This document shows positions 208 to 30,199 of a DNA stretch of 39,667 bases, in pieces (position 1 is the stretch's first letter; each line of letters begins with the position of its first letter). The stretch comes from Lachnospiraceae bacterium (GTDB lineage: Bacteria; Bacillota; Clostridia; Lachnospirales; Lachnospiraceae), in contig JAFTVH010000067.1 of the NCBI GenBank assembly GCA_017465845.1, positions 1 to 39,667 on the forward strand, in the 5' to 3' direction. Under the pieces are notes generated by a model that saw only the letters and a list, made by a program, of their open reading frames with translations, was not told the origin of the DNA and ran no database searches. The translations under genes and the position numbers were made by a program.

Positions 208-255
208 GTTACAGAATTGTTAAGCAATAGTAATAATTTTGGAAGGAAAAATGTT

Positions 256-3200: not shown

Positions 3201-3423
3201 GATTCAGTCCGGCGGTTATAAAGCAGGTGTGTACGCTAACAGGAACTGGTTGACAGAAAAGATTGATGCAAGTGCACTGGGCTCTTATAAGATCTGGCTT
3301 GCTCAGTACGCAGACAAGCCTACTTATTCCGGAAGATACGATATCTGGCAGTATCAGTCTACCGGTAAAGTCAGCGGAATCAACGGAGATGTGGATATGA
3401 ACTGGAGTTATCTGGGATATTAA
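256..3423 (+). CDS. Membrane-anchored GH25 lysozyme with acidic N-terminus and Big_2-like domains
   Basis: Predicted peptidoglycan hydrolase (N-acetylmuramidase) of 1055 aa. Order: cytoplasmic region of about 180 residues very rich in Asp, Glu and Tyr, with repeated LES(E/D)DEYY-like units; one membrane segment (about 197-219); an Ala/Glu/Lys-rich coiled coil (about 260-290); a Lys/Glu-rich stalk; three Big_2-like beta domains; a choline/wall-binding-like repeat (YTGWQTIDGSVYYFDANG); and a C-terminal GH25 domain from about 859. The GH25 signature GIDVSKWNG and the catalytic-type pair D956/E958 in FLDVEAS are present. The start is ATG 256, because GGAAGG (241-246) lies 9 nt before it; an in-frame TTG at 217 has no such site. 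It has its own promoter. The type II topology puts the hydrolase outside the cell and the acidic tail inside. The domain calls are strong; the role of the tail is unknown. Confidence 0.9.
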   Translation: MKKLFNHRKRPYDDKIDYDEWNDIEQSGEEEYAGEDEYDSAEEYDFAETESEYIEEDAEQDGEFYAEDEYLESEPEREEAGYDEVDYAEGGFESEDEYYAEDAEYADDAEGDLESEDEYYTGEIEYTDDIEGDLESDDEYYADEYSDDEEYDDEYDEEYDDEDEILSLFRHKDSQPRKKARSGPVLGFLNMGTMDKIITCTGVIVLIVALITGGIYASSRILDNQIESFVTVGTQLADIDLPGKAGLLAVADAEAARKAAADALKAQEEEQKRLEEEAKEKDKEYEEQEYANAITVVMNMTSIQKDLKIKFVNKKTDKLISNVPFKVTVTRPDGSTETWSDDDMDGIIYKTKLDGGIYKVQAAELSGDKYRNYSLPASAQKVEVKKEIEYKKVDVKDEIKTEAEVDVKKEDTKKNETQVEIKLEDTVGWVDSTTTLVNYKEVEKSTISDPATLVYSGSFRRLAQVTTESTSQTTTVTTPATTPVSYTGTISDSSKTLKVGETFTLTASVEGVKLTEVKWTSSNESIAKITGSGAQITVEAVGEGTAFISYTASGTTIGSDEVSSGNAVTDLQGATCTVKVEKAVALTKGTLSADVTAPAMAVGGKVSVKTAASGFTEGKALAYTISNSKADIADATVDEQGNVTITGKATGETTVTVGVNYKEGGSDATKATLDLNVKVTGALAITLDKTTATAYIGTPLAITAALTNAVNGTAVTAESANAGIATVSVDKNVVTVTGVATGSVDITVKYTENGQEVKAVCTVTVKNDPKNDRTNKLKDVNGNQIYVQEAGNYREAYYADYYTASKFYVKGEAKYTGWQTIDGSVYYFDANGNKVTGEQVIQGAKYNFGPNGVLNTGSGTRGIDVSKWNGNIDWNAVKNSGIEYVIIRCGYRGSSQGALIEDPKYKTNIQGAINAGLKVGVYFFTQAISEAEAVEEASMVLELVKNYKISYPVFLDVEASGGRADSIDKATRTAVCKAFCQTIQSGGYKAGVYANRNWLTEKIDASALGSYKIWLAQYADKPTYSGRYDIWQYQSTGKVSGINGDVDMNWSYLGY

Positions 3424-5033: not shown

Positions 5034-5057
5034 AAAAAGGTAGATGGCTGTTTTAAG

Positions 5058-5102
5058 GGTCTCCAAACTTCTTGAGGGGTTGCCAAACTTGTTGAGACCG
5101 AA
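5058..5102. repeat. 20-bp direct repeat within an imperfect hairpin
   Basis: CCAAACTT(C/G)TTGAG occurs at 5063 and again at 5083, exactly 20 bp apart. The block is bounded by the inverted arms GGTCTC (5058-5063) and GAGACC (5094-5099). It lies between the stop of the AAA/nuclease gene and its terminator. No function is recognised. Confidence 0.6.
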
Positions 5103-5120
5103 AAGACATAAATCAGAAAG

Positions 5121-5176
5121 CAAAAGCAGGCATAGATGGTAGGATAAGAAATCACACCACCCATGCCTGCTTTTTA
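5121..5176 (+). terminator. Rho-independent terminator after the AAA/nuclease gene
   Basis: GCAGGCAT (5126-5133) pairs with ATGCCTGC (5163-5170) and a run of five T follows. The enclosed segment can extend the stem (ATGGT with ACCAC). It separates the lysozyme/nuclease unit from the polysaccharide operon. Confidence 0.7.
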
Positions 5177-5203
5177 AGTATTGTCTCTCTTGGCAAATTG
5201 GGC

Positions 5204-5239
5204 TAGCCATAAGTACAATTCTTTGATATAATATCAAAG
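5204..5239 (+). promoter_or_regulatory. Promoter of the polysaccharide operon with a palindrome over the -10
   Basis: A -35-like TAGCCA (5204-5209) lies 17 bp before a perfect TATAAT (5227-5232). The -10 is inside a perfect 19-bp palindrome, CTTTGATATAATATCAAAG (5221-5239). The palindrome could be an operator that blocks RNA polymerase when bound. The -35 matches the consensus at only 4 of 6 positions. Confidence 0.6.
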
Positions 5240-5298
5240 AAAAGACAGATTTTGTAAAAGGTAAAGAGAATAGAAAAGTAGGAAAGGATAAAAAGAAA

Positions 5299-5865
5299 AT
5301 GGGTAAAATAACGGTAGAAACATGTGAAATTGAAGGATTAAAAGTCATCACCCCCACTGTATTCGGAGATGCAAGGGGTTATTTTATGGAGACGTATCAT
5401 TATAATGATTATAAGGCTGCGGGAATTGATGTGGAATTTGTACAGGACAATCAGTCTGCTTCCAGGAAGGGCGTGTTGCGAGGACTGCATTTCCAAAAAG
5501 AATTTCCCCAGGATAAGCTGGTCCGTGTCATCAGGGGAGAGGTATTCGATGTGGCAGTGGATTTAAGAGAAGGTTCTCCTACTTTCGGACAGTGGCACGG
5601 TGTGCTTCTCAGCGAAGAGAATAAGAAACAGTTCTTTATTCCCAAGAATTTTGCACATGGCTTCCTGGTATTATCCGATTATGCGGAATTCACCTATAAA
5701 TGTACAGATTTCTATCATCCCAATGATGAGGGCGGTCTGATTTACAATGACCCTGAAATCGGTGTGGAATGGCCGATTCCTGAAGGTATGGAACTTGTAA
5801 TGTCCGAAAAGGATACCAAGTGGGGCGGACTGTCAGCTTATAAGGCAGAAAGAGGACTGAAATAA
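5299..5865 (+). CDS. rfbC: dTDP-4-dehydrorhamnose 3,5-epimerase
   Basis: RfbC/RmlC epimerises dTDP-4-keto-6-deoxyglucose on the way to dTDP-L-rhamnose. The 188 aa match the usual family length. Family features are GDARGYFMETY, the catalytic His in RGLHFQ (H64), FAHGFLVLSD, TYKCTDFYHP and a late NDPEIGVEWPI. AGGAAAGG (5280-5287) precedes ATG 5299. It is the first gene of a run that reaches 15873, and the permease gene starts 3 nt after its stop. The partner genes rfbA, rfbB and rfbD are not in this window, so they must lie elsewhere if the pathway is complete. Confidence 0.96.
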   Translation: MGKITVETCEIEGLKVITPTVFGDARGYFMETYHYNDYKAAGIDVEFVQDNQSASRKGVLRGLHFQKEFPQDKLVRVIRGEVFDVAVDLREGSPTFGQWHGVLLSEENKKQFFIPKNFAHGFLVLSDYAEFTYKCTDFYHPNDEGGLIYNDPEIGVEWPIPEGMELVMSEKDTKWGGLSAYKAERGLK

Positions 5866-5868
5866 CAC

Positions 5869-6855
5869 ATGAATATAACGAAGAAGCATGGAATTGCCCT
5901 GGCGCTGACTCTCGGCGCAGTAGTGGCGGCTATCATCATATTTCATAACAATCCGGGAGCGGATCCTACAGAGGAGCTGATCAAGAAAATCATCTCCTGC
6001 GTTGTGATTCTCTTTTCCTGTATTATTTTTATAAAATTGTATGATAAAATTACGGTCCTTCCTGTGGAGTTATATCAGAACAGGCATCTTATCTGGAAAT
6101 TGGCGAAGAACGATTTCAAGAAACGGTATGCCGGTTCTTATCTGGGGGCAGTCTGGGCGATGGCGCAGCCTGTGGTAACGGTTGCCATGTATTATGTGGT
6201 ATTCGATGTGATTATGGACAGCAGCGCTAATGTGCTTAGAAGCGGTGTGGAGATTCCCTTTGTACTGTACCTGACAGCGGGACTGGTGCCCTGGTTCTTT
6301 TTCACGGAAGCGCTGACCAATGGTACCAACGCTCTGTTAGAGTACAATTATCTGGTGAAAAAGGTGGTTTTTAAGATCAGTATCCTGCCTATTATCAAGG
6401 TAATTGCAGCTACCTTCATTCACGTATTTTTTGTGTGTTTGCTTTTGATCATTGCGGCCGTATATGGATATTATCCAAGTATTTATACGATACAGCTTGT
6501 ATATTACAGCTTCTGCCTGTTCATCTTTGTGCTGGCACTGAGCTATACTACATGTGCGGTTGTCGTATTTTTCAGGGATTTGTCTCAGATCATCAACATC
6601 GCGCTGCAGATCGGTATGTGGGCAACGCCGATTCTCTGGAACATGGATGCGCTGAACGGAAAGTGGATTGCTGTCCTGAAACTGAACCCATTGGTATATA
6701 TCGTAAATGGTTACCGCAGTGCCATATATGAAAAAGAATGGTTCTTCCGGGACTTCTTTTCAACTATGTATTTCTGGATTGTGACAGTTGTACTGTTTGG
6801 CATCGGCGCGCTGGTGTTTAAGCGTCTGAAGGTTCATTTTGCGGATGTGCTGTAA
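5869..6855 (+). CDS. ABC-2 type polysaccharide export permease (Wzm/TagG-like)
   Basis: Membrane permease of 328 aa for ATP-driven export of a lipid-linked polysaccharide across the cytoplasmic membrane. The typical start of the ABC-2 fold, LIWKLAKNDFKKRYAGSYLG, follows two extra N-terminal hydrophobic segments (about 8-25 and 40-57). About six more membrane spans follow, with the usual NPLVYIVNGYRS near the end. The matching ATPase is two genes downstream (8490). The two N-terminal helices are an addition to the common family core of about 260 residues. The family is clear, but the exact cargo (rhamnan-type polymer versus teichoic acid) is an inference from the neighbours. Confidence 0.92.
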   Translation: MNITKKHGIALALTLGAVVAAIIIFHNNPGADPTEELIKKIISCVVILFSCIIFIKLYDKITVLPVELYQNRHLIWKLAKNDFKKRYAGSYLGAVWAMAQPVVTVAMYYVVFDVIMDSSANVLRSGVEIPFVLYLTAGLVPWFFFTEALTNGTNALLEYNYLVKKVVFKISILPIIKVIAATFIHVFFVCLLLIIAAVYGYYPSIYTIQLVYYSFCLFIFVLALSYTTCAVVVFFRDLSQIINIALQIGMWATPILWNMDALNGKWIAVLKLNPLVYIVNGYRSAIYEKEWFFRDFFSTMYFWIVTVVLFGIGALVFKRLKVHFADVL

Positions 6856-6876
6856 TGGCAGTACACATTTTGCATT

Positions 6877-6933
6877 GCAAGCGTAAGATGATACTGCAAG
6901 TGTAAGATGATACCGCAAGTGTAAGATGATAAG
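6877..6933. repeat. Three tandem 19-bp repeats
   Basis: Units begin at 6877, 6896 and 6915, each close to GCAAGTGTAAGATGATACC. Every unit contains ATGATA, so three ATGs fall in three different frames just before the next gene. The last unit ends in AAGG, which forms part of the ribosome binding site for ATG 6944. Confidence 0.85.
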
Positions 6934-6943
6934 GAAAATAGTT

Positions 6944-8458
6944 ATGAAAGAGAAAGGCAAAACAGCAGGATGGGTGCGCACTGTCCTGACTTTTAGGCTT
7001 GACAGACGATTGGCAGCAGCAGGCTCATTTCTGGTATTGCTTGTGATGCTGGTACCGATAATAAGGATCATGGAATACACAATTCCCTGGTATGACGATT
7101 ATAATTATGCGCTGGTGGGGCATCGTTACTGGGAGGAGACACATTCTCTCATGGACGTGCTCAAAGGGGCAATCTATACTGTAAAGACCAACTGGCATGT
7201 GTGGCAGGGAACGTTTTCTTCTATTTTCTTCATGTCGATGATGCCGGGGATCTGGGGAGAAAGCCAGTATTTCTGGGGGCCTCTTCTGCTGGTGATACTC
7301 TTAGTGGCAGGGTGTTTTGCCATAGCAGGTGTACTGTCAAGAGATGTCCTGAAGCTGGACCGTTTTGATACACTGCTTTTACAGTCAGTGACAGCAGGTG
7401 TGGCTGTAGCTTTGATTCATTCTTCGCAGGCAGGGTTTTATTGGTATAATGCCGGTGTCCACTATGTAGGAATGCATAGCTTTATGCTGCTTTTGACTGC
7501 TGCGGGAATCCATCTTTATTTTGTAAAAAAAAGAATGGCTGCAGTATTTTTGATCCTCTGGACTTTGATTGGTGCTGTGATTGCCGGAGGCAGTAATTAT
7601 GTGACTTCTTTGCAGGGAAGCCTGATTTGGTGTCTGCTGATTTTGTTGGGTATCCTTCTGCGCCGCAAGCGTGTGTGGATGTCGATTCCGGCGTTTTGTG
7701 TATATGCGTTTAGCTTTTATAAGAATGTATCGGCACCCGGGAATAGTGTGCGTCAGGCGCAGCTTGAAGGTGTAGGACTGGGGATGGATGCCTTGCCGGC
7801 AATCGGTCATTCTTTTGGGGCGGCAGCAGAGTATCTGTTCCGATTCGGTGGATGGATGACGCTGGCAGTCCTGGTGCTGATGATACCGATCTTCTGGAAT
7901 ATGGCAGGACGGACCGGGTTTAGATTTGCCTGGCCGGGATTGGTGTCACTGGCTTCCTTTTGTCTGTTCGCGACAGGCTTTACGCCCAGTTTCTATTCTC
8001 TGGGACATGAGGGGCTGAGCAGGACTCTGAATGCAGTGAAAATTACGTATCAGATATTATTGTTATTAAATGAAATGTACTGGATCGGATGGCTGGTAAG
8101 AAAGCGTGAGACAGCAGGAAAATCCGGAAAAGTGCCCATGTACTGGTGGTTCTTCCCGGCGATGGGAGCAGTTATGTTGTTCATTATGTTGACGTCCTCT
8201 AATATTGCCGGCACCTATTCTTTTTATGGGGCATACTATTATGTACATACCGGAGAAGCTTTCAACTTTTATCAGGAGTATCTGAACCGCGTACAGACTA
8301 TCAAGGAGGGCGAAAGCAGTGTTACGGTAGAGCCTTATCATTTCAGACCATGGATTCTGTGTGTGGATGATTTGTCAGAGGATGGCAGTGCGGAACCTAA
8401 CAGGGCAATAGCCGAGTGGTATGGAAAGGAAGATATTTCCTGTAAAATACAGCAGTAA
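6944..8458 (+). CDS. Polytopic membrane protein, DUF6056/GT-C-like
   Basis: Integral membrane protein of 504 aa with about ten hydrophobic segments. After the first span it has an extracellular acidic motif, WYDDYNYA, placed like the catalytic acidic motif of GT-C glycosyltransferases. Overall it resembles the DUF6056-type proteins of surface-polysaccharide loci, but I cannot confirm this without a profile search. The start ATG 6944 is chosen because AAGGAAA ends about 8 nt upstream; ATG 6926 lies inside the third 19-bp repeat and has no site of its own. It sits between the exporter permease and ATPase, so a role in decorating the exported glycan outside the membrane is plausible but unproven. 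Confidence 0.7.
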   Translation: MKEKGKTAGWVRTVLTFRLDRRLAAAGSFLVLLVMLVPIIRIMEYTIPWYDDYNYALVGHRYWEETHSLMDVLKGAIYTVKTNWHVWQGTFSSIFFMSMMPGIWGESQYFWGPLLLVILLVAGCFAIAGVLSRDVLKLDRFDTLLLQSVTAGVAVALIHSSQAGFYWYNAGVHYVGMHSFMLLLTAAGIHLYFVKKRMAAVFLILWTLIGAVIAGGSNYVTSLQGSLIWCLLILLGILLRRKRVWMSIPAFCVYAFSFYKNVSAPGNSVRQAQLEGVGLGMDALPAIGHSFGAAAEYLFRFGGWMTLAVLVLMIPIFWNMAGRTGFRFAWPGLVSLASFCLFATGFTPSFYSLGHEGLSRTLNAVKITYQILLLLNEMYWIGWLVRKRETAGKSGKVPMYWWFFPAMGAVMLFIMLTSSNIAGTYSFYGAYYYVHTGEAFNFYQEYLNRVQTIKEGESSVTVEPYHFRPWILCVDDLSEDGSAEPNRAIAEWYGKEDISCKIQQ

Positions 8459-8489
8459 TGACGTGTGAACTGTGAGTAAAGGTGAAAAC

Positions 8490-9800
8490 ATGGAAGAAAA
8501 AAACATTGCAATAGAAGTCAAAGATGTAAGAAAAATATATAAGCTGTATGACAAGCCTTCCGACCGGATGAAAGAAGCTTTTGGCCTTGGTAAAAAGAAG
8601 AACCACAAGCTGCATTATGCTTTAAATGGTGTGAGCTTGAATATTCACCAGGGGGAGACGGTGGGAATTATCGGAACCAACGGTTCCGGTAAATCTACTT
8701 TGTTAAAGATCATCACCGGTGTATTGAATCCAACGGAAGGTAATGTGCAGGTGAACGGCAGGATTTCCGCTCTTTTGGAGTTGGGAGCCGGCTTTAATAT
8801 GGAATATAACGGCATCGAGAATGTGTATTTAAACGGCACCATGATGGGTTTTTCTGAGAAAGAAATTGATGCCAAGCTTCCGGATATCCTGGAATTTGCG
8901 GATATCGGAGATTATGTCAATCAGCCGGTAAAGACATATTCCAGCGGTATGTTCGTTCGTCTGGCGTTTGCGGTAGCCATTAATATCGAGCCGGAAATTT
9001 TAATCGTAGACGAGGCACTGAGCGTAGGAGATGTATTTTTCCAGGCAAAGTGTTATCACAAATTTGAAGAGTTCAAGAAGATGGGCAAGACCATCGTATT
9101 CGTCAGTCATGATTTGAGCAGCATCAGCAAGTATTGCGACAGGGTATTCCTTCTAAATAAAGGCGTGCTGCTTGGAGAAGGCAGTCCCAAGGAAATGATT
9201 GATGCCTATAAGCGCGTGCTGGTGGGGCAGTATGAGGTGCCTGATAAGGAAGAGCATCAGAACTTGCTTCATGATCAGGCATTGATAGAAGCAGCAGGCA
9301 AGAGCAGCAAGGTGAGCAGTGCAGCCGGAACGGGTGCTGAGAATCCCAATGCCCTGGAGTACGGTGATAAAAAGGCGCAGATTGAGGAATTCTATCTGAC
9401 GGATGATAATAATGTGCGGACAACAGCAGTAATCAAGGGCAGCGAATTTACGATTCACGTGCGGGTTCGGATCCTGGAGCATATACCGGCACCAATTTTT
9501 GCTTTTTCTTTGAAGAATGCCATTGGTACGGAGATTACCGGTACCAATACCATGATAGAAAAGGCTTTTCTGGAAAGTGCAGAGCCGGGACAGGTGAAGG
9601 ATGTGACCTTTACCCAGAAAATGACCCTGCAGGGCGGAGAGTATCTGTTATCGTTGGGTGTGACAGGATATAACAAGGATACCTTTGAGGTATATCATCG
9701 TCTGTACGATGTACTCAATATTACTGTGGTTTCAGATAAGAATACAGTAGGTTATTATGATATGGAATCCCGGGTAAAAGTTGTGGAAGCCGGGAAATAG
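8490..9800 (+). CDS. ABC exporter ATPase with C-terminal glycan-binding-type domain (Wzt-like)
   Basis: Nucleotide-binding subunit (436 aa) of the polysaccharide exporter whose permease is at 5869. Walker A GTNGSGKST is at 62-70, the signature SSGM at 151-154 and Walker B ILIVDEAL has D174/E175. After about residue 240 comes a low-complexity linker, then a beta-rich domain (about 295-436) like the C-terminal domain of Wzt, which in E. coli O8/O9a recognises the modified end of the finished glycan. TagH-type ATPases lack this domain. The start is ATG 8490 after AAAGGTG; a GTG 18 nt upstream is poorly placed. The following gene encodes a candidate end-modifying enzyme, which fits a terminus-recognising exporter. 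Confidence 0.9.
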   Translation: MEEKNIAIEVKDVRKIYKLYDKPSDRMKEAFGLGKKKNHKLHYALNGVSLNIHQGETVGIIGTNGSGKSTLLKIITGVLNPTEGNVQVNGRISALLELGAGFNMEYNGIENVYLNGTMMGFSEKEIDAKLPDILEFADIGDYVNQPVKTYSSGMFVRLAFAVAINIEPEILIVDEALSVGDVFFQAKCYHKFEEFKKMGKTIVFVSHDLSSISKYCDRVFLLNKGVLLGEGSPKEMIDAYKRVLVGQYEVPDKEEHQNLLHDQALIEAAGKSSKVSSAAGTGAENPNALEYGDKKAQIEEFYLTDDNNVRTTAVIKGSEFTIHVRVRILEHIPAPIFAFSLKNAIGTEITGTNTMIEKAFLESAEPGQVKDVTFTQKMTLQGGEYLLSLGVTGYNKDTFEVYHRLYDVLNITVVSDKNTVGYYDMESRVKVVEAGK

Positions 9801-9815
9801 GGATGTAGGTAGCGT

Positions 9816-11894
9816 ATGGCAGAAACATTTGGAACAGAAAAGGTTGGTAAAGTAAGCCTGGATTACAGCAAGTATCCGGGGCAGGACTTTTATTGTGACG
9901 GCAGTGTGGAGGACGAACTTCTGGAAATCGTCAAGACTTATCCTGCCGGTGATTATGCAAAGGTGATTCAGGAGCGGAAGAAGTGGCCCATATTGTATCA
10001 TCTCTCGCCTCAGCGTGAAAATATCGTAGAGTGGATTCCCATGAAGAAATCTGATAAAGTGCTGGAAGTGGGAAGCGGCTGCGGTGCCATTACAGGGGCC
10101 CTGGCGAAAAAGGCGGGGACTGTGACCTGCGTGGACTTATCCCGCAAAAGAAGTCTCATCAATGCCCACAGACACAGTGACTGCGGCAACGTCACCATTC
10201 ACGTAGGCAATTTTAAGGATATCGAACCTACTTTGGAGGCGGATTATGATTATATCTGCCTGATTGGTGTGTTTGAATACGGTCAGAGTTATATCGGCGG
10301 CAAGACTCCGTATGAAGATTTTCTGCGAATTCTGATGCGCCACCTTACTCCCGGGGGCAGGATCATCATTGCCATTGAAAATAAGTACGGGCTGAAATAT
10401 TTTGCAGGATGTAAAGAGGACCATCTGGGTACTTACTTCAGCGGTATTGAGAATTATGCGGATGGCGGCGGTGTGCGGACATTCGGACGTAAGGGGCTGG
10501 AAAAGATTTTTACAGCCTGCGGTGTCGGGGAAAGCCACTTTTACTATCCTTATCCGGATTATAAGTTTATGACTACACTTTACAGCGATAAGCATCTGCC
10601 GGGAAAAGGGGAGCTGGTCAACAACCTGCGCAACTTTGACAGGGACAGAATGCTTCTTTTCCATGAAAAAGAAGCATTTGACGGTTTGCTTGAGGAAGAA
10701 TTGTTCCCTGTATTTTCCAATTCTTATATTGCAGTATTGGGAGCCGATTTCTCTGTGGAATATGCAAGGTATTCCAATGATCGTGCACCTCAGTACCGGA
10801 TCAGAACACAGATAGACCGTGACAGCAGCGGAAACCGGCTGGTACGCAAAAGCCCGCTGAGTGACCACGCACTTGCACATGTACAGGGGATGGAAGCATC
10901 CTACAAAGCATTGCTTGAGCGTTATCAGGATTCTGATCTGAAGATCAATCATTGTCATCTGGAAGAGAAGGATGCCTGCTTTGCATATGTGGAGGGAGTG
11001 CCGCTGTCCCAGCTGATGGATCGATGCCTGGAGCAGGGAGATGAAGAAGGGTTCCTGGCATATTTCCGGGACTTTGTAAAGCGTATCGGTTATCATCAGG
11101 ACAGCAACGTAACGGACATGGATCCCGTATTTTCCAATATAATGGTGTCCGGAGAGGAATGGACATTGATTGATTATGAGTGGACGTTCCAAAAGCATGT
11201 GGAATGTAAAGAACTTGCATATCGGGTGATCTACTGTTATCTTCTGGAAGATGAGAAGAGAGGGAAGCTTCCGATGGAGCGTATCCTTGAGGAACTGGGC
11301 ATCTCTCAGGAAGAGGCGGCACTGTACAGAGAGCGGGAAATGGAATTCCAGCAGTTTGTAACGGAAAATAACCGTTCCATGGCTCAGATCAGAGAGGATA
11401 TCGGCTATCAGATCACGCAGCCGGTGAAATGGGTTGACAGATATCAGAATGCAGCCGGTGTGAACCGGGTGCAGATTTACGAGGATAAGGGAGCAGGATA
11501 TCAGGAGGAAAGCTCCTATTTTGTACAGGATGCTTATCAGGGAGAGAATCTCATAGAGTTTTCGGTTACAGTGGGAGGAGATGTGAAGAATCTTCGTATC
11601 GATCCTGCTATGGACAGTTGTATTGTGAAAATTCAGGAGATGACCTGGAATGGTTTGAGTATTGATATGGGCAACCGGCGCATTGTGGTGGCCAACGGAC
11701 GCGTGGCAGCAGCCGGAGAAGCTGTGCTTCCCAGTATTGTATTCCCTACCACAGACCCTAACATCAATATCAGACTGGAACGGCTGAATCGCCTGGAGAG
11801 CAACAGGCTGAATGTGAAGATGGAAATTGTCAGGATCCCCATGGCAATGGCAGCCGATATGGCGCAGAAGACGGGCGGTATCCTAAGGAGGTAA
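9816..11894 (+). CDS. SAM methyltransferase-kinase fusion, candidate chain terminator (WbdD-like)
   Basis: This 692-aa protein joins two catalytic-type domains. Residues about 60-250 form a class I SAM methyltransferase: motif I VLEVGSGCGAIT (E84, G86, G88), then TCVDLS. Residues about 300-500 look like a protein/aminoglycoside-kinase fold: a beta-3-type lysine in LVRKSP (K345), hinge-like AYVEGVPLSQL, catalytic-loop-like DPVFSN (D436 and N441), and metal-binding-like LIDYEW (D453). A beta-rich C-terminal region follows. WbdD of E. coli O9a has the same methyltransferase-then-kinase order and caps the O-antigen end that Wzt reads. No long coiled coil is seen here, unlike WbdD. The gene begins 15 nt after the Wzt-like gene, which supports a joint role. 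The fold calls are fairly sure; the substrate is inferred. Confidence 0.78.
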   Translation: MAETFGTEKVGKVSLDYSKYPGQDFYCDGSVEDELLEIVKTYPAGDYAKVIQERKKWPILYHLSPQRENIVEWIPMKKSDKVLEVGSGCGAITGALAKKAGTVTCVDLSRKRSLINAHRHSDCGNVTIHVGNFKDIEPTLEADYDYICLIGVFEYGQSYIGGKTPYEDFLRILMRHLTPGGRIIIAIENKYGLKYFAGCKEDHLGTYFSGIENYADGGGVRTFGRKGLEKIFTACGVGESHFYYPYPDYKFMTTLYSDKHLPGKGELVNNLRNFDRDRMLLFHEKEAFDGLLEEELFPVFSNSYIAVLGADFSVEYARYSNDRAPQYRIRTQIDRDSSGNRLVRKSPLSDHALAHVQGMEASYKALLERYQDSDLKINHCHLEEKDACFAYVEGVPLSQLMDRCLEQGDEEGFLAYFRDFVKRIGYHQDSNVTDMDPVFSNIMVSGEEWTLIDYEWTFQKHVECKELAYRVIYCYLLEDEKRGKLPMERILEELGISQEEAALYREREMEFQQFVTENNRSMAQIREDIGYQITQPVKWVDRYQNAAGVNRVQIYEDKGAGYQEESSYFVQDAYQGENLIEFSVTVGGDVKNLRIDPAMDSCIVKIQEMTWNGLSIDMGNRRIVVANGRVAAAGEAVLPSIVFPTTDPNINIRLERLNRLESNRLNVKMEIVRIPMAMAADMAQKTGGILRR

Positions 11895-11947
11895 GCTCAA
11901 GACTTAAGTACAGAATTGTATATTCATACAGGCCGGAGGTGAGAAGG

Positions 11948-13912
11948 GTGGGAATCCGCGAGCGGATCAAAGAAGAATTAACAAAGCGCTGTGAGCAGCA
12001 ATATGAAAAAGATTTGGCGGCTAAAAAAGTGACTTATAAAGAGTGGCTGGCCGGACACGGAGATGCGTTGTTTGCCGGTGGGCAGGAAGCACGGCAGCAG
12101 AGTGGTTCCGTCCTTCTTCTTCAGGCAAGTGACGGAGTGCTTGCTTCGGGAGCGGAAGACAGGATCAGGAGTTATTTTCACCAGCATCCGGAGGTGATGA
12201 TCGCTTACGGTGACGAGGATGTTCAGGATCCTGCTACGGACGAGTTTGTGGCACCATGGTTCAAGCCGGACTGGTCTCCCGATACGTTCCTGAGTGAAAT
12301 GTACTGGGGCAATGTGGTGGCCATTCGCAGGGATTGGCTGGAAAAGCTGCAGGATTTAAAGGCGAAAGACCTGACAGCAGAAGCATTATCCGAGGATGCC
12401 TTAAAAGAGTCGCTGGCCAAGCTGGCTGTGGAGGCAGGCGGTTTTGAGCCGGGCTGTCAGACAATCGGCCATATTCCATATGTTTTGTTTCATGCAGACA
12501 GTGCAGAGCAGCAGACAAGGTGCAGGGCGCTTTGTATGAAAGATGCTGTGGAACGGCTGCTTGGAAAGGAAAGCAAGGCTACGCCAATGGTCTCTGTAAT
12601 CATCCCCTCGAAAGATCACCCTGAAATCCTGAAGCAGGGATTGCTGGCTGTTTATGATACTTTGGGAGAAGATAAATGTGAGATTCTGGTGGTGGACAAT
12701 GGAAGCAGCCGGGAGAACCGACAGCAGATTGAGGAGTTTTTGAAAGAAGCTCCGGTGCCCATATCTTATTTGTATGAGCCCATGGAATTTCATTTTTCCA
12801 GAATGTGCAATCTTGGGGCGCAGCATGCAAAGGGAGAGTTTCTGTTATTTTTAAATGATGATGTAGAAATGCGCTGTCAGGGCTGGATGGAACGTATGGT
12901 AGAGAAAGCATCCCAGCCTCACGCAGGAGCCGTGGGAATGAAGCTGTATTATCCGGACAGTGTGCGGATGCAGCATGACGGTATCGTAAACCTTCCTATG
13001 GGGCCGGTGCACAAACTGCAGTTTCTGGAGGATGATCAGGAGTATTATTACGGCTTCAATACTGTTGACCGGAATGTGCTTGCAGTGACAGGTGCCTGTC
13101 TCATGGTACGGCGGGAGAAATATATACAGGCAGGTGGGATGAGCGAAGAACTGCCTGTTGCTTTTAATGATGTAGACTTGTGTTTTAGGCTGTGGGAACT
13201 GGGATATCACAATATCATTTTGAACAGTGTCTACGGATGGCATCATGAGTCATTGTCGAGAGGCGATGATGAATCGCCTCAGAAGCTTAAGCGACTGCTT
13301 GGAGAGAAGGAAAAGTTGTACCGGAAGCATCCGCAGCTTAAGGAGGGCAGGGATCCGTATTATTCAGAATCGTTAAATCGTGACGGTTTGGATACCGGGA
13401 TCAGGCCGGCATATGTAACCGCAGGCAACCACATTCAGATATCGGCACCTGTAAAGAAGAAGCTTGACCTTGGAAAATATCGCAGAGACAATTGCCTGCT
13501 ATATCGTGTGGAACGTTGTGAGGAAGAATGTATACAGGGTTATGGTGTGGTGCTGGGGGACAACAATGCCTGTTACGACAGGACTCTGGTATTGTGGAAT
13601 CCGGAGGAAGCTTGTCCGGAGCAATATGCCCTTTTTCCTGAGCAAGATGCCCTTTTTCCTGAGGCGGGAGGGAAAATTACCTGCTACTGTATTCCGCTTA
13701 CCGGTCAGTATCGACCGGAACTTGCGGAAAACATGATGGACCAGAGCAATGTAGCATTGTGCGGCTTTTGGTGGAAGCCTGAGCCCGGCAGTCTGCCGGA
13801 GGGCAGGTATCGTCTTGGAATGACCGCCCGCAGCAAAACAGGAGGAACCAGACTGATTAACTGGAGCAGCCATGAACTGCAGACCGGATGGAAAGGTTGG
13901 AACGAAAAATGA
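11948..13912 (+). CDS. GT2 glycosyltransferase with degenerate N-terminal GT domain
   Basis: Cytoplasmic glycosyltransferase of 654 aa. Residues about 214-450 form a complete GT-A domain: MVSVIIPSKDH, VVDNGSS, FLNDDVE (N303-D305 as the metal-binding motif), VTGACLMVRRE and AFNDVDLCFRL. The N-terminal 200 residues look like the second half of another GT2 domain (YGDEDVQDP, PWFKPDWSPDT). Where the DxD motif should be, they read QASDGVL (59-65), and the nucleotide-binding first half is missing. A beta-rich C-terminal part follows. The start is GTG 11948, 8 nt after GGAGG (11935-11939); GTG 11939 overlaps that site. The next gene overlaps its stop by four bases (ATGA), so the two are translationally coupled. 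Donor and acceptor sugars cannot be read from sequence; rhamnose is a reasonable guess beside rfbC. Confidence 0.88.
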   Translation: MGIRERIKEELTKRCEQQYEKDLAAKKVTYKEWLAGHGDALFAGGQEARQQSGSVLLLQASDGVLASGAEDRIRSYFHQHPEVMIAYGDEDVQDPATDEFVAPWFKPDWSPDTFLSEMYWGNVVAIRRDWLEKLQDLKAKDLTAEALSEDALKESLAKLAVEAGGFEPGCQTIGHIPYVLFHADSAEQQTRCRALCMKDAVERLLGKESKATPMVSVIIPSKDHPEILKQGLLAVYDTLGEDKCEILVVDNGSSRENRQQIEEFLKEAPVPISYLYEPMEFHFSRMCNLGAQHAKGEFLLFLNDDVEMRCQGWMERMVEKASQPHAGAVGMKLYYPDSVRMQHDGIVNLPMGPVHKLQFLEDDQEYYYGFNTVDRNVLAVTGACLMVRREKYIQAGGMSEELPVAFNDVDLCFRLWELGYHNIILNSVYGWHHESLSRGDDESPQKLKRLLGEKEKLYRKHPQLKEGRDPYYSESLNRDGLDTGIRPAYVTAGNHIQISAPVKKKLDLGKYRRDNCLLYRVERCEEECIQGYGVVLGDNNACYDRTLVLWNPEEACPEQYALFPEQDALFPEAGGKITCYCIPLTGQYRPELAENMMDQSNVALCGFWWKPEPGSLPEGRYRLGMTARSKTGGTRLINWSSHELQTGWKGWNEK

Positions 13913-15873
13913 CGGAATTAGAATACAAAGAGGCGTATGAGAGCGAGCACATCAAAAATGCGGATTTGGCAGCCAGAATTGCAGAGCTGGAGGCAAAGAA
14001 CGAGGAATTGGAGTGGAAGCTTGGCAGAATCAAGAACAATCCCCTCTGGAAAGCCAGCAAGCCGGCAAGAGACTGGATCCACTGGGCCATCAGACAGAAG
14101 GACCGCATTGCCAACTGCGGCGGGCCTAAAGGTGTGATTCGGAAGCTGGAATATAAAAAGAGGGAGAGGGAGGCTATGACCCGGTTCGGTACAGCCAGCT
14201 TTCCTTCTGAGGAAGAAGCTGCCAGACAGCGTGCAGAACGTTTTCCGAGAATGGTGAAGATCAGTATCCTGGTACCGCTTTGGAATAATAAGAGAGAGTT
14301 CCAGATTGAGATGCTGGAATCAATTATGAACCAGACTTATGAAAACTGGGAGCTTTGCCTGGCTGACGGTTCCGATGGGGAGCATGACTATATCGGGGAG
14401 ATCTGCCGGGAATATGCAGCCAAAGCCAATGGCCGTATCGTCTATAAGCATCTGGAAAAGAACGGCGGTATCGCAGGTAATACCAATGAATGTCTGAAGC
14501 TGGCAACCGGTGAATATATCGGTCTTTTTGACCAGGATGATGTACTGCATCCGTCTACGTTATATGAATATGTGAAGGTGATCAATGAGCAGGGGGCAGA
14601 CTATATCTACTGTGATGAGACCACTTTCCATAACGGTGATATCAATAATATGCTGACCATGCACTTTAAGCCGGATTATGCGCCGGACAATTTGCGTGCC
14701 AACAATTACATCTGCCATTTCAGTGTATTTTCCAGAGAACTTCTGGACGGAACAGAGCTGTTTCGACCGAAGTTCGACGGCAGCCAGGATCACGATATGA
14801 TTCTGCGCCTCACCGACAATGCCAGGAAAGTAGTCCATGTGCCCAGGCTTTTGTATTATTGGAGAAGCCACTCGGGAAGCGTTGCCTCCGGAATCGAGGC
14901 GAAGCCTTATGCCATCCAGGCCGCCAAGGGAGCAGTGGCTGAGCACCTGAAGAAGCATGGCTATACTCATTTTAAAATTACCAGTACCAGAGCTTTTGAA
15001 ACCATTTTCCGGATTCAATATCAGATTATCGGTAACCCGAAGATTTCCATTGTGATTGCCAACAAGGATCATGAACAGGACTTAAGAAGATGTATCACTT
15101 CGATTCTCGAAAAGTCCACCTATGATAATTATGAGATCATTGTGGTGGAAAATAACAGTACTACACCTGAGATTCAGGCCTATTATCAGGAGCTGGCTGA
15201 CAATGAGCGGGTAAAAGTGGTAAGGTTTCAGGGAGCATTCAACTATTCTGCCGTCAATAATCTGGGCGTGTCTCAGGCGGAGGGTGAATATATTCTTTTG
15301 CTGAACAATGATACGGAAGTCATTACCGTCAACTGGATGGAAGAACTGCTGATGTATGCCCAGAGAGAAGATGTGGGAGCCGTGGGAGCTAAGCTTTATT
15401 ATGCTGATAAGACGATTCAGCATGCCGGAGTGGTCATCGGACTGGGAGCTCACAGAACAGCAGGACATACTCATTATAAGCAGTCCCGCCAGAACCTGGG
15501 CTATATGGGAAGACTTTGTTATGCTCAGAATGTATCTGCGGTGACGGGAGCCTGTCTTATGGTGAAGAAGAGCCTTTACGATGCTGTAGGTGGATTAGAT
15601 ACCGGTTTTGCTGTGTCCTTAAATGATGTGGACTTTTGTCTGAAGCTGCGTAAGCTGGGTTATCTCAATGTGTGGACGCCGTTTGCGGAGCTGTACCATT
15701 ATGAGTCCATTTCAAGAGGTCTGGATGACCGGGGAGACAAGGCAGAACGTTACAATAAGGAATCAGAAATGTTCCGCAGCAGATGGAAAGAAGAGCTGGA
15801 GAAGGGAGATCCTTACTACAATCCTAATTTTTCACTGGACAGAAGTGATTTTTCACTGAAGATACAGAACTAA
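13909..15873 (+). CDS. Tandem-domain GT2 glycosyltransferase with N-terminal coiled coil
   Basis: 654 aa. A heptad-patterned coiled coil (about 14-45) precedes two complete GT-A domains. The first starts at about 115 (MVKISILVPLWNN), has FDQDDVL (D208-D211) and ends with VPRLLYYWRSH. The second starts at about 378 (KISIVIANKDH), has LNNDTEV (N466-D468) and ends with SLNDVDFCLKLRKLGY. Both look catalytically intact, so the enzyme may form two linkages. The ATG at 13909 overlaps the previous stop as ATGA; an in-frame ATG at 13888 is an alternative. It is the last gene before the terminator at 15887. The coiled coil could serve in oligomerisation or in partner binding within an assembly complex; this is inference. 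Confidence 0.9.
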   Translation: MTELEYKEAYESEHIKNADLAARIAELEAKNEELEWKLGRIKNNPLWKASKPARDWIHWAIRQKDRIANCGGPKGVIRKLEYKKREREAMTRFGTASFPSEEEAARQRAERFPRMVKISILVPLWNNKREFQIEMLESIMNQTYENWELCLADGSDGEHDYIGEICREYAAKANGRIVYKHLEKNGGIAGNTNECLKLATGEYIGLFDQDDVLHPSTLYEYVKVINEQGADYIYCDETTFHNGDINNMLTMHFKPDYAPDNLRANNYICHFSVFSRELLDGTELFRPKFDGSQDHDMILRLTDNARKVVHVPRLLYYWRSHSGSVASGIEAKPYAIQAAKGAVAEHLKKHGYTHFKITSTRAFETIFRIQYQIIGNPKISIVIANKDHEQDLRRCITSILEKSTYDNYEIIVVENNSTTPEIQAYYQELADNERVKVVRFQGAFNYSAVNNLGVSQAEGEYILLLNNDTEVITVNWMEELLMYAQREDVGAVGAKLYYADKTIQHAGVVIGLGAHRTAGHTHYKQSRQNLGYMGRLCYAQNVSAVTGACLMVKKSLYDAVGGLDTGFAVSLNDVDFCLKLRKLGYLNVWTPFAELYHYESISRGLDDRGDKAERYNKESEMFRSRWKEELEKGDPYYNPNFSLDRSDFSLKIQN

Positions 15874-15886
15874 ACAATTATAAAAG

Positions 15887-15931
15887 AGCGGATGCCGCTG
15901 CCTGTCCGGGCAAAGCGGCATCCGCTTTTTT
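15887..15931. terminator. Strong bidirectional terminator
   Basis: A perfect 13-bp stem, AGCGGATGCCGCT (15887-15899) with AGCGGCATCCGCT (15914-15926), is followed by six T on the plus strand. A-rich sequence precedes it, so it can also serve the convergent minus-strand gene that ends at 15931. Confidence 0.92.
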
Positions 15932-22235: not shown

Positions 22236-22265
22236 AATCGCAGATATTAAGACTGGGTGACGCTT

Positions 22266-23672
22266 ATGATCAAAGACAACCAAAAGGTGTTCAACAGGCT
22301 GCATCTGATAATGGATGCAATCATCACAGCAGCCTCCTATGCACTGGCATATTATATTAAATTTTATATTATGAAGCCCGGTCCGCAACTGGGAGATCTT
22401 CCGACCGCTAACTATTTTGCGGCGCTTTTTGTACTGGTGCCTCTGTACATGATACTGTATTATTACTGTAATGTATATACGCCGAAGCGTACTGTAAAAA
22501 GGCGGCATGAAATTCTTGGTATCATCAAGGCAAATGTTCTTGGTATCGTGATTTTTATCCTCTCACTGTATGTGGTCATGAGAGAAATCAACTTTTCACG
22601 AATGATGATGGGTATGTTCGTTTGCCTGAATATATTCTTTACTTCCTGTTCACGTATTGTTCTACGTAAAAGTTTGCAGACCATGCGGAGCAAAGGATAT
22701 AATCTGAAGCACATCCTGCTGGTAGGGTATTCCAGATCGGCAGAAGAATATGTCAACAGGATAATGGACAATCCTCAGTGGGGATATGTAGTATGCGGTA
22801 TATTGGACAACCATGTACCGAGAGGAACTCTTTATAAGGGAGTAAAAGTTCTGGGTTCTATCGGAAATCTGGAGTATATCCTGCCGGAAAATAAGCTGGA
22901 CGAAATTGCCATTACACTTTCCCTCAAAGACTATGAGCATCTGGAACATATTGTTGATATCTGTGAGAAGTCGGGTGTGCATACTAAGTTCATACCTGAC
23001 TATAACAGTCTGATTCCGTCTCATCCTTATACAGAGGATTTAATGGGACTTCCGGTAATCAATATCAGATATGTGCCGTTGAGTAATACGATGAATATGT
23101 TGGTCAAGCGTGCCGTGGATATTGTGGGTTCTTTCGTTGGAATCATAGTGACTTCGCCCATTATGCTTGTAGCAGCCGTACTGGTCAAGCTTTCCAGTCC
23201 GGGACCGATTATTTTTAAACAGGAGAGAGTAGGGCTTCACAACAAGCCTTTTTATATGTATAAATTTCGGAGTATGGAGCAGCAGGCTCCCAGTGAGGAG
23301 AAGAAAGCCTGGACGGTCAAGAATGATCCCAGAGTGACTCCTGTGGGAAGAATTTTGCGAAAGACCAGTCTCGATGAGCTGCCGCAGCTGTTCAATATTT
23401 TGAAAGGTGATATGAGTCTTGTAGGTCCCAGGCCGGAACGACCTCTTTTTGTAGAAAAGTTCAAAGAGGAAATTCCACGCTATATGGTGAAGCATCAGGT
23501 CAGACCGGGGCTGACCGGATGGGCGCAGGTAAACGGTTACAGAGGAGATACCTCTATCCGCAAGCGTATTGATCACGATATTTATTATATTGAGAACTGG
23601 ACATTAGGACTTGATATAAAAATTATATTTATGACATTTTTTACTGGCTTTATTAACAAAAATGCATATTGA
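22266..23672 (+). CDS. Undecaprenyl-phosphate sugar-phosphate transferase (priming enzyme)
   Basis: Starts polymer synthesis by moving a sugar 1-phosphate onto undecaprenyl phosphate. In 468 aa it has four N-terminal membrane segments, a nucleotide-binding-like middle domain (HILLVGYSRSAEEYV) and the C-terminal bacterial sugar transferase domain from about 281 (KRAVDIVGS). That domain carries FKQERVGLHNKPFYMYKFRSM, LDELPQLFNIL, MSLVGPRPERP and RPGLTGWAQVNG, all typical of the WcaJ/CpsE class. The start is ATG 22266, 5 nt after GGGTGA; GTG 22257 lies within that site. The downstream LCP gene begins 27 nt after its stop, giving a primer-plus-ligase pair. The sugar (glucose, galactose or other) cannot be fixed from sequence. 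Confidence 0.93.
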   Translation: MIKDNQKVFNRLHLIMDAIITAASYALAYYIKFYIMKPGPQLGDLPTANYFAALFVLVPLYMILYYYCNVYTPKRTVKRRHEILGIIKANVLGIVIFILSLYVVMREINFSRMMMGMFVCLNIFFTSCSRIVLRKSLQTMRSKGYNLKHILLVGYSRSAEEYVNRIMDNPQWGYVVCGILDNHVPRGTLYKGVKVLGSIGNLEYILPENKLDEIAITLSLKDYEHLEHIVDICEKSGVHTKFIPDYNSLIPSHPYTEDLMGLPVINIRYVPLSNTMNMLVKRAVDIVGSFVGIIVTSPIMLVAAVLVKLSSPGPIIFKQERVGLHNKPFYMYKFRSMEQQAPSEEKKAWTVKNDPRVTPVGRILRKTSLDELPQLFNILKGDMSLVGPRPERPLFVEKFKEEIPRYMVKHQVRPGLTGWAQVNGYRGDTSIRKRIDHDIYYIENWTLGLDIKIIFMTFFTGFINKNAY

Positions 23673-23699
23673 TGAATATGCAAAAAGGGAGATTTGATT

Positions 23700-24839
23700 A
23701 TGGCAACGAATTCCAATCAGACAAGAGGTGCGGGACAGCACGCAGGTAACGGACAGGTTTCTAAAAGTAAGATGGCAGCAAAGCAGAAAGCAGCCAGAAA
23801 AAGAAGGAAGATTATTGTATTTGCAGCAGAGATCATAATATTGGTAGCGATGCTGGCTGTATTATTTGTGTTATTCGATAAGACAGAAGAGGCTCCTATC
23901 GTAGTAGAATTGCCTACTGAGGCTGAAAGCATCGGAATTGCATCTCAGGTAGAAGAAAGTCCTGTCATGAAAGGTTATTGGAATATTGCGTTGTTCGGTA
24001 TCGATGCTGAGAATGAGAAGCAGCTTGTAAAAGGTGCAAGAAGTGACAGTATTATGATAGCCAGCATCAATCTGGATACCGGTGACATTAAGCTGGTAAG
24101 TGTATATCGTGACACCTATCTGAATATTGGTGACGACTATTACATAAAATGTAATACGGCGTATTCCAATGGCGGCGGTGAACAGGCAGTTACCATGCTG
24201 AATGCTAACCTGGATTTGGACATTCAGGACTTCATTGCAATCGGTTATGAAGGTCTGAAAGGTGTTGTAGACGGTTTGGGTGGTGTATATCTGGATGTAG
24301 ATGAACAGGAACTCAAGCATATCAACAATTACCAGTACAGTATCGATAAGATTCTGAAATGTGGATATACAGAAGTGACCAAAACCGGTTATCAGAAGCT
24401 TGATGGTATGCAGGCTGCAGCTTACTGCCGTATCCGTTACAGGACAGGTGATGACTTTGCCCGTGCTGCAAGCCAGCGTGAGTTGATTCAAGCCATTGAA
24501 GAACGGATCAAAGAGGTGGATCTGGCCACCTTAACCAAGGTATTTGAAGAGGTTATGGGTCATGTTGTTACCAGCCTGACGACAGATGATATTCTTCCTT
24601 ATCTGTCCCAGGTATCCAATTATAAAATTGTAGATGAAGGCGGTTTCCCGGAATCATCCATGCGTACCACCGGTAATATCGGAAGCAAAGGAAGCAGTGT
24701 TATCCCTGTAGATCTGGAATCTAATGTAGTATGGCTCCATGAATTCCTGTTTGGAGTGGAGGATTACAAGGTATCCGACAAGGTTAAGGAGTACAGTGGT
24801 GAGATTAAAGCGGAGACATCACCTTATCTGAACAAGTAA
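23700..24839 (+). CDS. LytR-CpsA-Psr (LCP) family glycopolymer ligase
   Basis: LCP proteins attach undecaprenyl-linked wall polymers to peptidoglycan outside the cell. This 379-aa protein has a short basic cytoplasmic tail, one membrane segment (about 38-60) and an extracellular LCP domain: GARSDSIMIASINLDTGDIKLVSVYRDTYLNI in two adjacent motif blocks, later YCRIRYRTGDDFARAASQRE. The Arg and Asp residues known to bind the pyrophosphate in this family are present in those blocks. The start is ATG 23700 after AGGGAG; the in-frame TTG 23694 is too close. It follows the priming transferase in one transcript, which fits attachment of the polymer made by this locus. Confidence 0.93.
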   Translation: MATNSNQTRGAGQHAGNGQVSKSKMAAKQKAARKRRKIIVFAAEIIILVAMLAVLFVLFDKTEEAPIVVELPTEAESIGIASQVEESPVMKGYWNIALFGIDAENEKQLVKGARSDSIMIASINLDTGDIKLVSVYRDTYLNIGDDYYIKCNTAYSNGGGEQAVTMLNANLDLDIQDFIAIGYEGLKGVVDGLGGVYLDVDEQELKHINNYQYSIDKILKCGYTEVTKTGYQKLDGMQAAAYCRIRYRTGDDFARAASQRELIQAIEERIKEVDLATLTKVFEEVMGHVVTSLTTDDILPYLSQVSNYKIVDEGGFPESSMRTTGNIGSKGSSVIPVDLESNVVWLHEFLFGVEDYKVSDKVKEYSGEIKAETSPYLNK

Positions 24840-27943: not shown

Positions 27944-28012
27944 GTGTTCATAAAGATAAGGAAAGGCAATGAACATAGGGTTCATCCTTTAGAAAGGAAA
28001 GAGGGAACAGAT

Positions 28013-30093: not shown

Positions 30094-30199
30094 GAGTACA
30101 GCAAGAAATTGCAGAACAATGTTGCAGCTGCTGTGGAAATCAGACGGCAACGAATGAAATGATACAATTTATGGATTGTTAAGAGAGGGTAAAGGATTT

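What the first reader, a model, noticed from the sequence alone, without database searches (positions are those of the whole stretch)
8490..11894. WbdD-like methyltransferase-kinase chain terminator beside a terminus-reading Wzt in a Gram-positive
The ATPase carries a Wzt-type C-terminal domain, and the next gene, 15 nt on, fuses a SAM methyltransferase (motif I at 83-90) with a kinase-like domain (K345, D436, N441, D453). Known: in E. coli O9a, WbdD has this domain order and caps the glycan end, and the Wzt C-terminal domain reads the cap before export. Inference: this Firmicute locus uses capping-coupled export for a rhamnose-containing wall polysaccharide. WbdD's coiled-coil ruler is not seen in this protein, but the glycosyltransferase at 13909 has an N-terminal coiled coil that could do that job in trans.
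Basis: partly seen in the sequence, partly recalled or inferred. Interest (0 to 1): 0.75.

Follow-up and report, generated by a model that had tools for sequence, protein, structure and literature searches.

The report
End-capping enzyme for wall sugar chains
A common family of gut bacteria carries a two-part enzyme that probably caps the growing end of a cell-wall sugar chain, next to an export pump with a domain built to read such caps, a scheme so far worked out mainly in Gram-negative bacteria.

Summary
In detail: at 8472-9800 lies a Wzt with a curated Wzt C-terminal domain, and 15 nt on a 692-residue protein (9816-11894) with a methyltransferase domain and a kinase-like domain; K345, D436, N441 and D453 are invariant in 58 aligned sequences. 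The protein is not a WbdD relative: against a true WbdD (matched to 4azs) only the generic SAM motif aligns. It aligns over some 620 columns with gammaproteobacterial proteins of the Klebsiella pneumoniae O7 ORF6 type, an experimentally proven methyl-phosphate chain terminator. ORF6 is one chain: methyltransferase, kinase, Ig-like domain, coiled coil, two rhamnosyl GT2 modules. The window holds these modules split over two genes, coil plus DXDD/NXD GT2 pair being 13888-15873; a Lachnospiraceae relative (L059) has all in one 1366-residue frame. In 150 genomes of the family, 69 of 71 high-scoring Wzt C-domains have the terminator within 12 kb (60 directly downstream), against 0 of 27 low-scoring ones. 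Best reading: capping-coupled export of a rhamnose-containing wall glycan. Gram-positive precedents exist (WsaE). No chemistry and no structure prediction support it yet. New variant of a known kind.

The parts
5299..5865 (+). RmlC, dTDP-4-dehydrorhamnose 3,5-epimerase
   Evidence: PF00908 E 4e-73; rmlB and rmlD over their curated cut-offs elsewhere in the same genome; rmlA not searched
5869..6855 (+). Wzm-type ABC-2 permease
   Evidence: PF01061 E 2.9e-16
8472..9800 (+). Wzt, ATPase of the glycan exporter (inner ATG at 8490 equally possible)
   Evidence: ABC_tran 8e-24 and Wzt_C 1.9e-39; best PDB matches 8dku and 7k2t, listed only as 'ABC transporter', which I recall as the Aquifex aeolicus Wzm-Wzt
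9351..9764 (+). Wzt C-terminal (carbohydrate-binding type) domain, residues 294-431
   Evidence: PF14524; best PDB match 2r5o, E 0.0032, a 'putative ATP binding component of ABC-transporter' that I recall as the E. coli O9a Wzt C-domain
9816..11894 (+). methyltransferase-kinase, proposed chain terminator (692 aa)
9816..10739 (+). methyltransferase part, about residues 1-308; SAM motif I at 83-90
   Evidence: Pfam; 34% over 291 aa to the P. asturiensis protein
10740..11420 (+). kinase-like part, about residues 309-535; D436-x4-N441 and D453 as the catalytic-loop and metal-binding residues (assignment by analogy)
   Evidence: invariant residues; clostridial kinase HMM scores P. asturiensis 29.2 bits against at most 1.7 for shuffles
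11421..11891 (+). C-terminal domain of unknown fold, about residues 536-692, in the place of the Ig-like/CBM domain of ORF6-O7
   Evidence: order and end-to-end alignment; as a separate domain the match is not significant
11939..13912 (+). GT2a, glycosyltransferase family 2
   Evidence: PF00535 E 5.8e-19
13888..15873 (+). GT2b: coiled coil plus two GT2 modules (DQDD at residue 215, NND at 473), the proposed polymerase and ruler half
   Evidence: two PF00535 stretches; 38% over 541 aa to the C-terminal half of the P. asturiensis protein; motifs
13951..14037 (+). predicted coiled coil, about residues 22-50, followed by a helix-like stretch with tryptophans (LWKASKPARDWIHWAI)
   Evidence: heptad score and relatives; homologous segment sits between terminator and GT modules in L059
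17713..19434 (+). phosphoglucomutase/phosphomannomutase-type enzyme of the cluster
   Evidence: PF02878 E 7.6e-43
22257..23672 (+). initiating sugar-phosphate transferase (Bac_transf)
   Evidence: PF02397 E 4.2e-74
23694..24839 (+). LytR-CpsA-Psr (LCP) enzyme, the likely ligase to peptidoglycan
   Evidence: PF03816 E 6.4e-29; function by family knowledge

Best explanation
The cluster makes a rhamnose-containing glycan on undecaprenyl phosphate inside the cell. GT2b (with GT2a) extends the non-reducing end. The 692-residue protein phosphorylates the terminal sugar (kinase part, D436) and methylates that phosphate (methyltransferase part), which stops growth. The C-terminal domain of the neighbouring Wzt binds the capped end and lets Wzm-Wzt export only finished chains; an LCP enzyme then joins them to peptidoglycan. 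The protein is a split version of the K. pneumoniae O7 ORF6 terminator-polymerase, not a WbdD: ORF6 carries terminator, coiled-coil ruler and two rhamnosyl GT2 modules in one chain, here the coil and the GT2 pair sit on GT2b, so the two proteins probably form a complex in which the ruler acts in trans. Shown by sequence: domains, motifs, homology, gene order, fusion in a relative. Inferred: activity, cap chemistry, cap reading, ruler, wall attachment.
For: Homology to O7-ORF6-type proteins: tblastn of the window protein against 72,556 plasmid records finds two, P. asturiensis 7e-34 and C. braakii 6e-26; pairwise blastp 9.2e-43 over residues 26-612 and hhalign 100% over 619 columns to the 1457-aa P. 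asturiensis protein; C. braakii 1.5e-32 and 99.9%. The P. asturiensis protein bears Y28, Y66, G91, G93, E112 and Y158 at exactly the numbers published for ORF6-O7 (6 of 6); its catalytic-loop Asp is 443 where ORF6 has D441 (PMC11231755 section 11). Window equivalents: Y26, Y61, G86, G88, D107, Y155, D436. ORF6-O7 phosphorylates and methylates a terminal Rha in vitro; D441A abolishes this and leaves non-exported polymer in vivo. GT2b has the DXDD and NXD motifs described for the two dTDP-Rha modules of ORF6 and 38% identity over 541 aa to the matching half. L059 encodes MT, kinase, C-domain, coil, GT2, GT2 in one frame. Wzt with C-domain upstream in 75 of 75 loci with room. In 150 genomes 69 of 71 high-scoring Wzt_C places have the terminator within 12 kb, 0 of 27 low-scoring ones. 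rmlB, rmlC and rmlD are in the genome.
Against: No chemical data. The ORF6-O7 sequence itself was not in reach; P. asturiensis and C. braakii stand in for it. PDB searches with the kinase part are not significant (best E 0.096; 0.027 for GCN2 with the whole profile). Taken alone, the kinase part aligns to P. asturiensis with hhalign 77% over 91 columns and to C. braakii with 1.8%, and the C-terminal domain with 1.3% and 0.4%. The terminator has no coiled coil of its own, which the O7 paper reports for all the ORF6 orthologues it aligned. GT2b follows on the same strand in 47 of 54 loci with room. Two of 71 high-scoring Wzt_C places have no terminator by my cut, and 4 of 73 terminator-like places have no Wzt_C on the contig. 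The window coil is weak by itself.
Confidence: 0.72

Rival explanations
1. True WbdD-family terminator: same mechanism, but by descent from or close kinship with E. coli O9a WbdD.
For: Same order of methyltransferase then kinase; same neighbour Wzt with C-domain; WbdD makes methyl-phosphate ends (PMC3482155, passages).
Against: Against an O9 WbdD (708 aa, matched to 4azs) blastp up to E 10 finds nothing in the methyltransferase part and one 13-residue match (E 6.0) in the kinase part; hhalign aligns 76 columns round the SAM motif (58%) and gives the kinase part 0.1%. The clostridial kinase HMM gives the WbdD kinase -2.7 bits, below its best shuffle (1.1), against 29.2 for P. asturiensis.
Confidence: 0.04
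2. The enzyme decorates the glycan along its length or modifies a side group (phosphate or methyl-phosphate substituent) and does not end the chain; the Wzt C-domain reads something else.
For: Homology and gene order alone do not show that the modified sugar is terminal; 7 of 54 loci lack GT2b on the same strand downstream.
Against: Strong link with one class of Wzt C-domain (69 of 71 against 0 of 27); fusion to a polymerase in L059; in the characterised relative a dead kinase leaves polymer unexported.
Confidence: 0.15
3. The kinase-like part is catalytically dead or has another substrate, and the protein caps with a plain O-methyl group, as WsaE and O8 WbdD do.
For: Plain methyl caps suffice in E. 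coli O8 and Geobacillus; in C. braakii the D453 equivalent is Glu (alignment).
Against: D436, N441 and K345 are invariant in 58 sequences, D436 and N441 in all 20 of a divergent set; D441A of ORF6-O7 kills the kinase.
Confidence: 0.09

Closest known systems
Klebsiella pneumoniae O7 ORF6 (PMC11231755)
   Same: Methyltransferase, kinase unrelated in sequence to WbdD, further domain, then coil and two GT2 modules with DXDD and NXD motifs; export by a Wzm-Wzt ABC transporter; rhamnose polymer.
   Different: One 1414-residue chain there, two genes here with the coil on the GT half; Gram-negative LPS there, Gram-positive cluster with an LCP enzyme here; one SAM-pocket Glu is Asp here (D107).
WbdD of E. 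coli O9a / K. pneumoniae O3 (PMC3482155)
   Same: Functional idea: kinase plus methyltransferase cap, export coupled to capping.
   Different: No detectable kinase homology; WbdD carries its own coil; polymannose substrate; partner WbdA.
WsaE with Wzm-Wzt of Geobacillus stearothermophilus (PMC2943079)
   Same: Gram-positive rhamnan, terminal cap predicted to be read by Wzt.
   Different: 2-O-methyl cap, no kinase mentioned, two GT domains in the same protein; S-layer glycoprotein rather than a cluster with an LCP enzyme.
Clostridium difficile SLCT-11 S-layer glycan (PMC6254364)
   Same: Clostridial rhamnose-rich glycan with a phosphate on the terminal rhamnose and an ABC transporter in the locus.
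   Different: 2,3-cyclic phosphate; capping enzyme not named in the passages I saw; 'methyltransferase' occurs 0 times in that text.

Membership tests
O7 ORF6-type terminator | N-terminal methyltransferase with the ORF6 SAM-pocket residues | tested here: met
   5 of 6 identical (Y26, Y61, G86, G88, Y155), E112 replaced by D107; aligned through P. asturiensis, which has 6 of 6
O7 ORF6-type terminator | following kinase domain of the non-WbdD kind with the catalytic Asp (D441) | tested here: met
   D436 aligned to D443 of P. asturiensis; HMM 29.2 bits against at most 1.7 for shuffles
O7 ORF6-type terminator | Ig-like/CBM domain after the kinase | tested here: inconclusive
O7 ORF6-type terminator | coiled coil in the same polypeptide | tested here: not met
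   no heptad signal in the last 52 residues of the 692-aa protein and none clearly beyond shuffles in the whole (23 of 200 reach it); the coil is on GT2b; of 80 loci only L059 has a terminator frame over 800 aa, and it holds coil and GT2 pair. Filed therefore as a split variant, not a standard member
O7 ORF6-type terminator | two GT2 modules with DXDD and NXD (in the same chain in O7; some orthologues lack them) | tested here: met
   on the separate GT2b, DQDD 215 and NND 473, 38% to the homologous half
O7 ORF6-type terminator | phosphorylates then methylates the terminal rhamnose | not testable with these tools
   needs enzyme assay or NMR
WbdD | kinase domain homologous to WbdD's eukaryotic-like kinase | tested here: not met
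   hhalign 0.1%, HMM -2.7 bits
WbdD | C-terminal coiled coil in cis recruiting the polymerase | tested here: not met
   no coil found in the C-terminal part of the protein
WsaE | methyltransferase plus two GT domains in one chain | tested here: not met
   no GT domain in the protein
capping-coupled Wzm-Wzt exporter | Wzt with C-terminal carbohydrate-binding domain beside a terminator gene | tested here: met
capping-coupled Wzm-Wzt exporter | the C-domain binds the cap and export depends on it | not testable with these tools
   needs binding and export assays

The most novel reading that the evidence does not exclude
Phosphate- or methyl-phosphate-capped, length-controlled rhamnose wall polysaccharides are a family-wide trait of Lachnospiraceae, made by a split terminator-polymerase pair whose ruler sits on the polymerase, with export gated by cap reading and LCP attachment to peptidoglycan: an O-antigen-style quality control used for a Gram-positive wall glycan.
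Probability: 0.4. Interest if true: 0.75.

Novelty: new variant of a known kind. Interest (0 to 1): 0.58.

Why it matters
About half of the sampled genomes of the family (71 of 150 with a match at E 1e-10 or better) carry a relative of the proposed terminator, so the surface glycans of a major gut family may end in a defined phosphate-type cap that has not been looked for. It would carry the O-antigen logic (cap, measure, read, export) over to a Gram-positive wall, it says where to look for the cap and the length control, and natural split and fused versions of one machine let the trans-ruler idea be tested. Seven paper searches of an open-licence library listed no report of this in Lachnospiraceae; most subscription papers are not in that library.

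Tried and rejected
Kinase identification by PDB sequence search: only sub-significant kinase matches; not used as proof. WbdD kinship: rejected on direct comparison. A plasmid search for more O7-type proteins found only the two already known.
Full report
What is there. One strand carries RmlC (5299-5865), Wzm (5869-6855), a DUF6056-like membrane protein (6926-8458), Wzt (8472-9800), the methyltransferase-kinase (9816-11894), two GT2 proteins (11939-13912, 13888-15873), then after a minus-strand PMT_2-like gene a phosphoglucomutase-type gene, two more GT2 genes, a Bac_transf initiating enzyme, an LCP enzyme and another GT2. rmlB and rmlD lie elsewhere in the genome, over their curated cut-offs; rmlA was not searched.

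Is the observation more than chance? Wzt_C matches at 1.9e-39 and the methyltransferase at 9.5e-10. Motif I is LEVGSGCG at 83-90. In 58 aligned sequences (window plus 57 of 80 fetched relatives) G86, G88, G90, K345, D436, N441 and D453 never vary. In a 20-sequence alignment that reaches down to 19% identity, D436, N441, E455 and W456 are invariant and K345 and D453 at 90% or more. The kinase part has no significant match to a curated model or a PDB sequence, so its fold rests on these residues and on homology to a characterised kinase, below.

What family it is. An O9-type WbdD was taken from an E. coli record (L114) and matched to PDB 4azs over residues 2-556. Against it the window protein shows only the SAM motif region: hhalign 58% over 76 columns for the methyltransferase part, 0.1% for the kinase part; blastp up to E 10 gives nothing for the methyltransferase part and E 6.0 over 13 residues for the kinase part. 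Two plasmid-borne gammaproteobacterial proteins behave differently: P. asturiensis (1457 aa, directly after Wzm and Wzt) aligns over residues 26-612 with pairwise E 9.2e-43 and hhalign 100% over 619 columns; C. braakii (649 aa, with rmlB, A, C, D, Wzm and Wzt) with E 1.5e-32. In the search of 72,556 plasmid records the two were the only matches, at 7e-34 and 6e-26. The paper on K. pneumoniae O7 (PMC11231755; abstract, passages, sections 10 and 11 whole, first part of section 13) describes ORF6: methyltransferase, 223-aa kinase unlike WbdD's, Ig-like domain, coiled coil, two dTDP-Rha GT2 modules (DXDD and NXD), 1414 residues. It shows phosphorylation and methylation of the terminal rhamnose in vitro and unexported polymer in the D441A strain. 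Its numbered residues Y28, Y66, G91, G93, E112, Y158 occur at exactly those positions in the P. asturiensis protein (6 of 6), which I therefore use as its stand-in. The window has Y26, Y61, G86, G88, D107, Y155, and D436 for the catalytic D441. A kinase HMM from 18 clostridial rows gives P. asturiensis 29.2 bits (300 shuffles, 183 scored, best 1.7), C. braakii 5.3 (190 scored, best 2.7) and the WbdD kinase -2.7 (167 scored, best 1.1). Taken alone by hhalign the kinase part is weaker: 77% over 91 columns to P. asturiensis, 1.8% to C. braakii; the C-terminal domain alone does not match. The link is to the O7 type, not to WbdD.

Where the ruler went. GT2b has DQDD at 215 and NND at 473, and 38% identity over 541 residues to the C-terminal half of the P. 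asturiensis protein. Its N-terminus holds a short coil followed by a tryptophan-bearing stretch. WbdD's coil ends in a similar-looking stretch (SRSWRMTKGYRYL; read by eye from the translation, no test made). The heptad score is weak in the window alone (16 of 200 shuffles reach it) and good in L059 (2 of 200); of 52 GT2b relatives my script could place 15, and 11 of these lie at or below 0.05 of 60 shuffles. L059 (a Lachnospiraceae MAG) has methyltransferase, kinase, C-domain, coil, GT2, GT2 in one 1366-residue frame, the only terminator frame over 800 aa among the 80 loci. Of 24 further loci examined by domain (L082-L105, 20 of them picked by me for variety in frame length), 9 have the kinase part in one frame with a GT2 match (L088-L094, L100, L102; the match in L092 is weak), and several have the methyltransferase as a separate gene. 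The pieces are thus shuffled between cis and trans, as the O7 paper describes for Gram-negative systems.

Genomic coupling. Of the 80 nearest loci (of 397 stretches, so not a random sample), 80 of 80 have methyltransferase and kinase parts in one frame (in L079 a stop cuts the kinase part); 75 have at least 1.4 kb upstream and 75 of these 75 have a Wzt with C-domain there, 73 within 600 nt; GT2b with both modules follows on the same strand in 47 of 54 loci with 6.5 kb downstream. Of the other 7, four have a minus-strand frame that matches both modules and three go straight to the phosphomutase and an LCP gene. In 150 genomes of the window's family, of 149 genera, terminator matches at E 1e-10 or better occur in 71; I used 73 places. 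The 98 Wzt_C places over the curated cut-off fall into 71 high-scoring (134-151 bits) and 27 low-scoring (32-120 bits). High class: 60 have the terminator within 0.6 kb downstream, 9 more within 12 kb (one of them upstream), 2 none (one of these, G066, has weak matches next to its Wzt that my cut dropped). Low class: 0 of 27 within 12 kb. I examined 11 of the 27 low-class loci, the window genome's own second Wzt_C included; no frame of 120 aa or more matches the methyltransferase, kinase or C-domain of this family. The window genome's second Wzt is followed by a 1159-aa methyltransferase-GT2-GT4 protein, an order like that of WsaE. Against the link: 4 of 73 terminator-like places have no Wzt_C on their contig. 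Outside the family the system is rare: 12 of 196 genomes of the class match (5 of them outside the family) and 7 of 199 of the phylum (5 outside the family, one of them, G486, a weak partial match).

How it most likely works. By analogy with ORF6-O7 (shown there, inferred here) the kinase phosphorylates the non-reducing terminal rhamnose and the methyltransferase methylates the phosphate; capped chains no longer grow. The Wzt C-domain, nearer to those of the two O7-type partners (blastp 1e-14 and 7e-10) than to O8 and O9 Wzt (1e-7 and 2e-6), would read the cap. GT2b would polymerise and hold the ruler, pairing with the terminator in trans. Bac_transf and LCP suggest a polyprenyl-linked glycan that ends on peptidoglycan (family knowledge).

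What is new. Cap-coupled export in a Gram-positive was proposed for WsaE of Geobacillus (PMC2943079, passages), and a C. difficile S-layer glycan ends in 2,3-cyclic phospho-rhamnose (PMC6254364, passages). The O7 paper names alpha- and gammaproteobacteria, cyanobacteria and the archaeon Methanoculleus marisnigri as holders of ORF6 relatives; its main text holds 'gram-positive' 0 times. New here are a kinase-type terminator of that kind in Gram-positives, its spread in one gut family, and the split form with the coil on the polymerase. I file it as a new variant of a known kind.

Noticed in passing
L132 (G000:C71:44000-60000), 3702-9344 minus: The same genome has a second Wzm-Wzt with a low-scoring Wzt_C, followed by a 1159-aa methyltransferase-GT2-GT4 protein (WsaE-like order): two different candidate terminator types in one cell.
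   Followed up: partly
L059:7989-12086: Single 1366-aa frame joining the terminator and the coil-GT2-GT2 polymerase, the only such fusion among the 80 nearest loci.
   Followed up: yes
window 6926-8458: DUF6056-like membrane protein between Wzm and Wzt; in L069 it lies between Wzt and the terminator and in L040 before Wzm; found in 37 of 80 relatives, some cut short. A related frame lies beside the second Wzt locus (L132 13059-14531).
   Followed up: no
window 217-3423: GH25 hydrolase with Big_2 and choline-binding repeats upstream of the cluster; frames matching this protein occur in 68 of 80 relatives, some of which are cut short.
   Followed up: no
window 15931-17523 minus: PMT_2-like membrane protein on the opposite strand inside the cluster.
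   Followed up: no
L048, L050, L058: Here the terminator is followed directly by the phosphomutase and an LCP gene, with no GT2b-type polymerase within 6.5 kb downstream.
   Followed up: no
window 30176-31768: ClpX-type zinc-finger AAA protein of 530 aa near a trypsin-like/PDZ protease gene (27920-29563), downstream of the glycan cluster.
   Followed up: no
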